45,738 nucleotides of DNA from Sedimentisphaerales bacterium (lineage in GTDB: Bacteria; Planctomycetota; Phycisphaerae; Sedimentisphaerales; Anaerobacaceae): the NCBI GenBank assembly GCA_016934255.1, contig JAFGTG010000017.1:1-45738 (forward strand). The letters run 5' to 3'. Below the pieces are notes generated by a model. That model did not search any database, was not told where the DNA came from, and worked only from the letters and a program-made list of their open reading frames with translations. How positions within the stretch are numbered: the stretch's first letter is position 1; every line of letters begins with the position of its first letter. This document shows positions 14,906 to 24,285 of this stretch, in pieces. Position numbers and translations under genes: made by a program.

Positions 14906-15141
14906 TCAGAAATAAGACTTTTACAAAATTGGAGGTTAGGCATACTTTTGGAAAGAAAAAATCTGTTTTCCTGATTTTTTCTTTTTAAAATCCAAAGAAC
15001 GATGTAGGGTACATAATATCTAACATCTTACATGATAATGCCTTATCTCAAGATTGTTGATTATTGTCAGAAAATCTTGAAACAGATTTTCTGACAATAA
15101 TATATGCCTAACCTCCAATTTTGTAAAAGTCTTATCAGAAA
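14906..15141. mobile_element. MITE-like element with 32-bp terminal inverted repeats
   Basis: The element spans 14913-15134 (222 bp). Its ends are perfect 32-bp inverted repeats (14913-14944 and 15103-15134, beginning TAAGACTTTTACAAAATTGG). The flanks are identical 7-bp direct repeats, TCAGAAA, at 14906-14912 and 15135-15141, as expected for a target duplication. Inside are two further hairpins: AAAGAAAAAATC/GATTTTTTCTTT (about 14953-14985) and an 18-bp perfect stem with 6-base loop (15060-15077 and 15084-15101). It encodes no protein. It lies upstream of the exported protein gene at 15228. A caution is that TCAGAAA also occurs inside the second hairpin, so the direct repeat may be partly coincidental. 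Confidence 0.75.
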
Positions 15142-15227: not shown

Positions 15228-17381
15228 ATGTCTGGGAAAGTAACATGTTTGGTTTCTTTAATCTTGGTGATTTGTTCTGTCGGTAACGCGGCGAGGATCG
15301 AGTGGAGCGGCGCCGGCGCCGACAACCTCTGGAGCACCCGGAACAACTGGAGTCCTGCTAAAATCCCGACGACGGCCGACGAGGTTTATATTGACGTACC
15401 GTATGCCAAAGCCCCCAATGGACCGGTGATTCAGGAAGGGATCGATGCGAAGGCCCTCGGTCTGGGCTGCGAGGTCCGCGGTGAGCCCAACATGGTGATG
15501 ACGGGAGGAACGCTTGAGATCACGGATTGGGTTTGGTGGGGTGACGGGGATGGATGCCACGGTACGCTTTACCTGAGCGGCGGGACGATCACGGTCACCA
15601 ACGAATTCGAACTCGGGTGGGGAGGAGGTTCGGGAACGATGTACATGACCGGCGGCACCGTCACCGCCGGAGAGCTTGTCATTCCGACGGCAAGCGGATT
15701 GGCGGGTGAACTCTTCCTTCACGGCGGCACGTTCAACGTCGGCAGCGACGGCCTCGAAATCAATACCGTCGGCTATATGGATGTCGGAGGAGGCACGCTG
15801 ATTATCGAGGGCGACTGGACGGCGAAGATCAACGAGTATATTGCCGCCGGCCTGATCACAGCCTACGATGGAGGCGGCTTATTCGAGTTGGACTATAACG
15901 ACAGAAATCCCGGCAAGACAACATTGTCGGCGATCTTCACAGGGAAAGCTTACAATCCTACTCCCGCCGACGGAGCCATCATTGAAGACATGTGGGCGAA
16001 TATCAGTTGGTCGCCGGCAACCGAGGCGATTTCGCACGATGTCTATATCAGCGACAACTTCGACGATGTCAACGATGGTACCGGCGACGCCTTCCGGGGC
16101 AACCAGGCGGCAATATATTTCGTTGTCGGTTTTCCCGGATTTCCTTATCCGGACGGCCTCGTGCCCGGCACAACCTATTACTGGCGCATCGATGAAGTCA
16201 AGGCGGACGTCTCAGTGGTCAGAGGGGATATCTGGAGCTTCAGTATTCCACCCAAGAAGGCCTACAATCCCAGCCCGACCGATGGAGCCGAGTTTGTCGA
16301 TCCGTCCGTCCTCCTAAGCTGGACAGCGGGTTACGGCGCGAAATTACATACCGTTTATCTGGGTGACGATTATGATACCGTGAACGGAGCCACCGGAGGT
16401 TCCCCACAAGGTACAGCCGCTTATCAACCGGCTACGGCGCTTGATCTTGAAAAAGTCTATTACTGGCGGGTTGATGAATTTGACGCTGTAGATACGTACA
16501 AAGGCGATATCTGGAGCTTTACGACGCCGGGCGCCGTCGGCAATCCAAGTCCGGCGAACGGCGCTGAAGACGTGAAGATGATCGCCACGCTAAGCTGGAC
16601 GGCGAGTACGAGCGCCGCGTCTCATGAGGTGTATTTAGGCACGAACGAAGAAGCCGTTCGCAATGCCGATGCAACTTCTCCCGAATATGTGGGTAGTAAA
16701 GCTCTTGGCGCCGAGAGTCACGATCCCGGCAAACTCGCCTGGCATACCACATATTACTGGCGCGTTGATGAGGTCGATGGCCAGGGCAACACACAGAAAG
16801 GTCCGCTTTGGACCTTCACCACGGCCGACTTCATCTCCGTGGACGATTTCGAGGGTTATACGGACAACGACGCGGAAGGCGAGGCCATCTGGCAAAGTTG
16901 GATCGACGGATACGGTGTCGCTGAAAATGGAGCGCAGGCGGGTTACCTGCTTCCTCCTTATGCCGAGCAAACCATCGTCCATGGCGGCCTCCAGTCGATG
17001 CCGCTTGTTTATACCAATGATCCGAGTGCGGCGGCCTATTCCGAAGCGACGCTTACCTTGAGCTACCCGCGCGATTGGACCGAAAATGACGTTAGCGCCT
17101 TAGTGATTTGGTTCCGGGGCAAGTCGGATAATGCGGCTGAACCGTTATACGTCGCCGTCGCGAACAGCGGTGGAGCCGCCGCGGTCGTCACGAATGATGA
17201 TGCGAACGCCGCTCAGAATCGTGAATGGACGAGATGGGTGGTCCAGTTGCAAGCCTTAAGCGATCAGGGGATTAACCTGACGAACGTTAACACGATTTCA
17301 GTGGGGCTTGGCACAAAAGGCGTTATGACGACAGCCGGCGGTACAGGCACGGTGTACTTCGATGATATCGCGCTGTATTGA
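15228..17381 (+). CDS. Exported beta-helix / FN3-repeat surface protein
   Basis: The start at 15228 is fixed by AAGGAGG six bases upstream; the two earlier ATGs are inside or before that site. The 717-residue protein has a signal peptide (1-22, TCLVSLILVICSVGNA). A Gly/Thr-rich beta-helix region (about 45-235) repeats MTGGTLEI, LSGGTITV, MTGGTVTA and LHGGTFNV. Three FN3-like repeats begin near residues 241, 345 and 438, each opening with NP.P.(D/N)GA and closing with YYWR(I/V)DE and a W.F(T/S) strand. A carbohydrate-binding-like C-terminal domain (537-717) ends VYFDDIALY. The likely role is binding or presentation of polysaccharide at the surface; no catalytic residues were recognised. Confidence 0.75.
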   Translation: MSGKVTCLVSLILVICSVGNAARIEWSGAGADNLWSTRNNWSPAKIPTTADEVYIDVPYAKAPNGPVIQEGIDAKALGLGCEVRGEPNMVMTGGTLEITDWVWWGDGDGCHGTLYLSGGTITVTNEFELGWGGGSGTMYMTGGTVTAGELVIPTASGLAGELFLHGGTFNVGSDGLEINTVGYMDVGGGTLIIEGDWTAKINEYIAAGLITAYDGGGLFELDYNDRNPGKTTLSAIFTGKAYNPTPADGAIIEDMWANISWSPATEAISHDVYISDNFDDVNDGTGDAFRGNQAAIYFVVGFPGFPYPDGLVPGTTYYWRIDEVKADVSVVRGDIWSFSIPPKKAYNPSPTDGAEFVDPSVLLSWTAGYGAKLHTVYLGDDYDTVNGATGGSPQGTAAYQPATALDLEKVYYWRVDEFDAVDTYKGDIWSFTTPGAVGNPSPANGAEDVKMIATLSWTASTSAASHEVYLGTNEEAVRNADATSPEYVGSKALGAESHDPGKLAWHTTYYWRVDEVDGQGNTQKGPLWTFTTADFISVDDFEGYTDNDAEGEAIWQSWIDGYGVAENGAQAGYLLPPYAEQTIVHGGLQSMPLVYTNDPSAAAYSEATLTLSYPRDWTENDVSALVIWFRGKSDNAAEPLYVAVANSGGAAAVVTNDDANAAQNREWTRWVVQLQALSDQGINLTNVNTISVGLGTKGVMTTAGGTGTVYFDDIALY

Positions 17382-24181: not shown

Positions 24182-24285
24182 GGTGCGATGCATCGCATCC
24201 TTTCGTGTCGAGGGCGTCCCGCCCTCGATTCGCGGGCAAGCCTGTCCTGAGCGAAGCCGAAGGAATGCCCGCGACATTATTGTAG
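24182..24285. repeat. REP-like palindromes between convergent genes
   Basis: The short gap holds GGATGCGATGCATCGCACC-type symmetry (about 24182-24200, GTGCGATGCATCGCATCC), a GAGGGC-GTCCC-GCCCTC hairpin (about 24211-24227) and TCGCGGGCA ... TGCCCGCGA arms (about 24230-24275) around GTCCTGAGCGAAGCCGAAGG. They probably act as a shared terminator. Confidence 0.6.

What the first reader, a model, noticed from the sequence alone, without database searches (positions are those of the whole stretch)
14906..15141. 222-bp MITE-like element with 32-bp perfect terminal repeats and 7-bp target duplication
Directly seen: perfect inverted repeats at 14913-14944 and 15103-15134, TCAGAAA direct repeats on both flanks, and two strong internal hairpins (one with an 18-bp perfect stem). 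It encodes nothing, so it would be moved by a transposase elsewhere. It is placed upstream of a surface-protein gene and may change its expression. The nested palindrome could alternatively be a regulatory RNA structure.
Basis: seen in the sequence. Interest (0 to 1): 0.7.

Follow-up and report, generated by a model that had tools for sequence, protein, structure and literature searches.

The report
Mobile non-coding palindrome family (MITE)
The 222-bp palindrome is one copy of a mobile, non-coding DNA element (a MITE) that is present about 60 times in this planctomycete genome and in many related genera; it is a new family of a well-known kind whose helper enzyme was not found.

Summary
In detail: perfect 32-bp inverted ends (33 bp counting a base shared with the flank), TCAGAAA on both sides, and two inner hairpins. 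The MITE reading is supported. The genome holds 60 left ends and 61 right ends of the family, with none for reversed controls, and relatives are found in 23 of 89 genomes of the same GTDB family (13 of 45 genera). Flanking direct repeats of 6-10 bp sit at the element boundary far more often than in mismatched flanks (for example 13 of 17 copies with at least 7 bp in one relative, against 0%). At three clean loci of a relative (UBA9295) the element is absent from congeners, and the empty site carries one copy of the duplicated target, so insertion is shown. No autonomous transposon with these ends was found; the helper stays unknown. The long stem and both inner hairpins covary across genera (15 of 44 pairs changed on both sides, 0 of 500 shuffles), so folding, or arm-to-arm copying, is maintained. 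Copies lie between genes, mostly tandem genes. The closest known design is QMITE2 of Coxiella. I found no report of this family in the papers held. An effect on the downstream secreted-protein gene is possible but untested.

The parts
14906..14912 (.). left copy of the 7-bp target-site duplication TCAGAAA
14913..14944 (+). left terminal inverted repeat, TAAGACTTTTACAAAATTGGAGGTTAGGCATA
   Evidence: same kind of end found about 120 times in the genome
14946..14990 (+). inner hairpin 1 (arms 14946-14963 and 14973-14990), conserved in family members
14991..15059 (+). variable centre, poorly conserved between copies and between genera
15060..15101 (+). inner hairpin 2 (arms 15060-15077 and 15084-15101, perfect 18-bp stem); in most other copies the stem has a one-base bulge
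15103..15134 (-). right terminal inverted repeat, perfect complement of the left one
15135..15141 (.). right copy of the 7-bp target-site duplication TCAGAAA
14115..14612 (+). context: upstream gene, AIR carboxylase (PurE-like)
   Evidence: PF00731, E 1.2e-55
15228..17381 (+). context: downstream gene, 717 aa with a signal-peptide-like start and no Pfam match; its ATG lies 93 bp after the element

Best explanation
The feature is one full-length copy of a MITE: a non-coding, non-autonomous DNA element with about 32-bp terminal inverted repeats that inserts into AT-rich intergenic DNA and duplicates 6-10 bp of target. Shown: repetition, defined ends, target duplication, and insertion (empty sites in sister species of a relative). 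Inferred: a transposase encoded elsewhere binds the two ends and moves the element by cutting and pasting. That transposase was not found, and its family is unknown. Also inferred: when transcribed, the element folds into one long stem with two side hairpins, and this may affect the mRNA of the gene downstream.
For: Own genome: a dozen near-full copies, most at 89-93% identity, in unrelated flanks and many partial ones, mostly cut at contig ends; 60 left ends and 61 right ends, with 0 for reversed-pattern controls. Family-wide: 23 of 89 genomes, 13 of 45 genera. TSD test at the boundary: at least 6 bp in 15/35 copies of G000 (3.8% in mismatched flank pairs), at least 7 bp in 13/17 of G008 (0%), at least 6 bp in 7/10 of G026 (4.8%). 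Empty sites: query of joined flanks matched without interruption in congeners G082/G083; alignment shows one copy of the target at G026 C679, C464 and C287. No coding capacity. None of 30 copies lies inside an ORF.
Against: No autonomous element with these ends was found in the carriers searched; transposases of PF01609 in carrier genomes have other ends, and PF00872 is absent from four of six carriers. TSD length varies (7 in most G000 copies that have one, 9-10 in G008), and 20 of 35 G000 copies have no duplication of 6 bp or more, as expected if many are old. The empty sites are for copies in a relative, not for the window copy: no same-genus genome is held.
Confidence: 0.94

Rival explanations
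1. A fixed regulatory RNA or attenuator of the downstream gene, kept by selection at this locus; the inverted repeats are the two sides of an RNA stem.
For: Very stable fold, z -15.2. Stem pairs covary across genera: 15 of 44 pairs changed on both sides, 108 cells against 23 in shuffles, including the inner hairpins. Position 93 bp before a start codon.
Against: Dispersed in about 60 unrelated places in one genome with target duplications, and empty sites in a relative's congeners. No Rfam family. Non-Watson-Crick pairs in the long stem show no bias to G-U over A-C (7 against 10), so no sign of one RNA strand being selected there.
Confidence: 0.03
2. A MITE in origin whose folded form has a further role (RNase III processing site, protection of mRNA inside operons, or a folded single-stranded DNA substrate), which is why the inner hairpins covary. 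This adds to the best explanation and does not replace it.
For: Inner hairpins are conserved and compensated while the centre is not; copies prefer spacers between tandem genes, 24 of 30, and are rare between convergent genes, 1 of 30. Correia elements are cut by RNase III and ERIC affects mRNA decay (review PMC10969869).
Against: Arm-to-arm correction of palindromes by template switching would give the same covariation without selection. Smaller versions lacking hairpin 2 (108 bp, G109 C68) or any interior (44 bp, G081 C74) exist. No expression data. Gene calls for the orientation count are crude.
Confidence: 0.25
3. A REP/REPIN-type palindrome moved by a RAYT (Y1 tyrosine transposase).
For: Palindromic, intergenic, high copy; REPs occur in the PVC group (PMC3733652).
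Against: Target-site duplications and 30-bp perfect terminal repeats; no conserved GTAG or CGTC tag at a stem foot in the alignment. A Y1 transposase search was not run.
Confidence: 0.02

Closest known systems
QMITE2 of Coxiella burnetii (PMC5896051)
   Same: 150-190 bp, TIRs of 17-29 bp, direct repeats of 7-11 nt of variable sequence, large stable stem, intergenic, full and truncated copies.
   Different: QMITE2 holds a GTAG REP that is an IS1111 target and lies mainly 3' of genes; the family here has two conserved AT-rich inner hairpins, no such tag, and lies mostly between tandem genes. No sequence comparison with QMITE2 was made.
Chunjie of Geobacter uraniireducens (described in review PMC10969869; original paper not held)
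   Same: 178-235 bp MITE, many full and partial copies, one inserted inside an operon.
   Different: Different bacterial phylum; sequence not compared.
Correia/NEMIS and ERIC elements (PMC10969869)
   Same: Mobile palindromes of 100-200 bp in high copy that fold when transcribed and can affect nearby mRNA.
   Different: From memory, Correia elements duplicate TA only; here the duplication is 6-10 bp. Effects on RNA are untested here.

Membership tests
MITE | short (under 500 bp), no coding capacity | tested here: met
   222 bp, no ORF of 80 aa or more inside
MITE | terminal inverted repeats | tested here: met
   32-33 bp, perfect
MITE | target-site duplication at the boundary | tested here: met
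   TCAGAAA here; 6-10 bp in many copies against 0-5% in mismatched flanks
MITE | multiple dispersed copies with unrelated flanks | tested here: met
   60 left and 61 right ends in the genome; flanks differ
MITE | evidence of insertion: empty site without the element and with one target copy | tested here: met
   three clean loci of G026 against G082/G083; not possible for the window copy itself
MITE | shares ends with an autonomous transposon that supplies transposase | tested here: inconclusive
   none found; draft assemblies break at repeats
REP/REPIN (RAYT-associated) | GTAG or CGTC tag at the foot of the palindrome, no target duplication | tested here: not met
   target duplications present; no conserved tag in the alignment
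REP/REPIN (RAYT-associated) | a Y1 tyrosine transposase in the genome | not tested
known structured RNA (Rfam) | match to a family above its gathering score | tested here: not met
   only two weak sub-threshold matches

The most novel reading that the evidence does not exclude
The nested hairpins are under selection as a folded molecule, so that this family is a mobile cassette which settles in operon spacers and sets mRNA processing or, when cut down to a single end, supplies the ribosome-binding site of the next gene, with the host benefiting.
Probability: 0.12. Interest if true: 0.6.

Novelty: new member of a known kind. Interest (0 to 1): 0.36.

Why it matters
It adds a high-copy MITE family with strong anatomy, copy-number and empty-site evidence in a lineage of Planctomycetota (Phycisphaerae; carriers include Sedimentisphaerales MAGs) for which I found no described MITE in the held literature. 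The covarying inner hairpins, the preference for spacers between tandem genes, and single ends that lie as leaders before genes give concrete, testable material on how such elements are tolerated or used.

Tried and rejected
Autonomous transposon: left ends without a partner (C136, C475, C85, C410, C559, G026 C538) were read and have ordinary genes, not recognised transposases, beside them. The TIR-only pattern searches showed no inward-facing pair at 0.6-5 kb that I would accept (some lists were cut). PF01609 transposases have other terminal repeats. PF00872 is missing from G008, G012, G017 and G026, which carry the element. Viral contigs: no match to the ends. Rfam: nothing. Promoter or terminator in the element: promoter-like matches no more than in shuffles, and the only terminator-like sites are outside the element. 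Empty site of the window copy: not possible, no genome of the same genus is held. A first-pass regex for right ends was wrong and was corrected.

Full report
Observation. The fold is 15 standard deviations better than shuffles. The region is AT-rich (about 30% GC against 45-60% around it) and has no ORF of 80 aa or more.

Repetition. The window is contig 326 of a 6.3-Mb draft genome in 634 contigs. The 222-bp sequence has a dozen near-complete copies, most at 89-93% identity, and many partial matches, most of them where contigs end inside the element, as assemblies do at repeats. The left-end pattern occurs 60 times and the right-end pattern 61 times, reversed controls 0. Subfamilies with other ends (GAGTTTTGC.., GAGTTCTGAAAAATTG..) and a shorter or longer variable centre are present. 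In the same GTDB family 23 of 89 genomes and 13 of 45 genera have a match, patchily within genera; G008 alone has 90 right ends. Named carriers are Phycisphaerales UBA9295 (same contigs as G026) and Sedimentisphaerales CSMAG_1460.

Target duplication. With the boundary fixed from the ends, the flanks of each copy were compared, and the same flanks paired wrongly as control. Repeats of at least 6 bp: 15 of 35 in G000 (3.8% in controls). At least 7 bp: 13 of 17 in G008 (0%). At least 6 bp: 7 of 10 in G026 (4.8%). Length is 6-8 in G000, 7 at the window copy, and up to 9-10 in G008, so the true footprint may be 9 with worn edges; I do not fix it.

Empty sites. No genome of the window's genus is held, so copies of G026 were tested against congeners G082 and G083. 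Joined flanks matched without interruption at several loci (the query as sent held 6,052 of the 7,227 bases prepared). At C679 the occupied site reads CTAAATTCTCAA|element|GTTCTCAGATAC, and both congeners read through a single copy (CTAAGTTCTCAAATACGC; CTAACTTCTTAAATACGC). C464 and C287 are equally clean in G083; C291 and C527 are empty with small flank changes. This shows insertion of the element with duplication of the target.

Helper. None was identified. Single ends, TIR-only patterns in own and related genomes, and transposases of PF01609 and PF00872 were examined. Draft assemblies lose multi-copy insertion sequences, so absence here is weak evidence. Cutting and pasting by a DDE transposase is therefore inference from the ends and the target duplication.

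Fold. In 52 copies from five genera, 98.4% of cells of the consensus structure pair, 15 of 44 pairs changed on both sides, 108 cells against 23 in shuffles, and sliding the partners by one column drops pairing to about 60%. The inner hairpins take part (for example pair 172-204 is C-G, A-U or U-A). Relatedness inflates such counts, and arm-to-arm correction by template switching could give the same result; in the window copy hairpin 2 is perfect where most other copies have a bulge. In the long stem, G-T and A-C mispairs are about equally rare (7 and 10), which gives no support for selection on one RNA strand. Versions without hairpin 2 or without any interior exist.

Context. Of 30 copies with enough flank, 24 lie between tandem genes, 5 between divergent, 1 between convergent, none in an ORF; intergenic bases in the background are 49, 33 and 18% (crude ORF calls, small sample). 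The window copy lies between a PurE-like gene and a 717-aa secreted-looking protein without a Pfam match, 93 bp before its ATG. An effect on that gene is possible and untested; no promoter or terminator is recognisable inside the element beyond chance.

Verdict. The element meets every tested feature of a MITE; only the helper is missing. Its nearest known design is QMITE2 of Coxiella. I found no report of this family, but the library does not hold all papers. It is a new member of a known kind.

Noticed in passing
L162:3949-4002 (G000 C136), L182 near 1473-1505 (C85), L183 near 662-705 (C410), L184 near 1655-1710 (C559), L104 near 1050-1100 on the - strand (G034 C78): Single ends of the family lie directly before gene starts: between two ABC-3 permease genes, 1 bp before the ATG of an oxidoreductase-like gene where GAAGG of the end could serve as Shine-Dalgarno sequence, before a nitroreductase gene, before a small ORF, and fused to the start of a macro-domain-like gene (this last name is by eye). 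They may be remnants taken over as leaders.
   Followed up: partly
L064 (C99), L077 (C144), L190 (C98); also L062, L128, L140; window 24209-24227: A second dispersed repeat, a double GC-rich palindrome (GTGTCGCGGGCATCCTGCCCGCGATTCGAGGGCGAGACGCCCTCGACAC), is nested in hairpin 1 of three MITE copies and occurs elsewhere in the genome; a related palindrome stands in the window.
   Followed up: partly
L273 (G081 C74, 6184-6227 in the contig): A 44-bp palindrome made of two terminal repeats joined with no interior.
   Followed up: partly
L274 (G109 C68, 1318-1426 in the contig): A 108-bp version of the element that lacks hairpin 2, with a GC-rich hairpin 1.
   Followed up: partly
L206/L281 (G000 C318), L210 (G008 C85): A DDE transposase (open frames of 578 and 615 aa) with terminal repeats CTAGC(A/G)CATGTTCGTCA is found in more than one carrier genome; its ends do not match the MITE.
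   Followed up: partly
L120 (Flavobacteriaceae UBA6231): One match to the left-end core pattern outside the Planctomycetota; probably chance at this pattern length.
   Followed up: no
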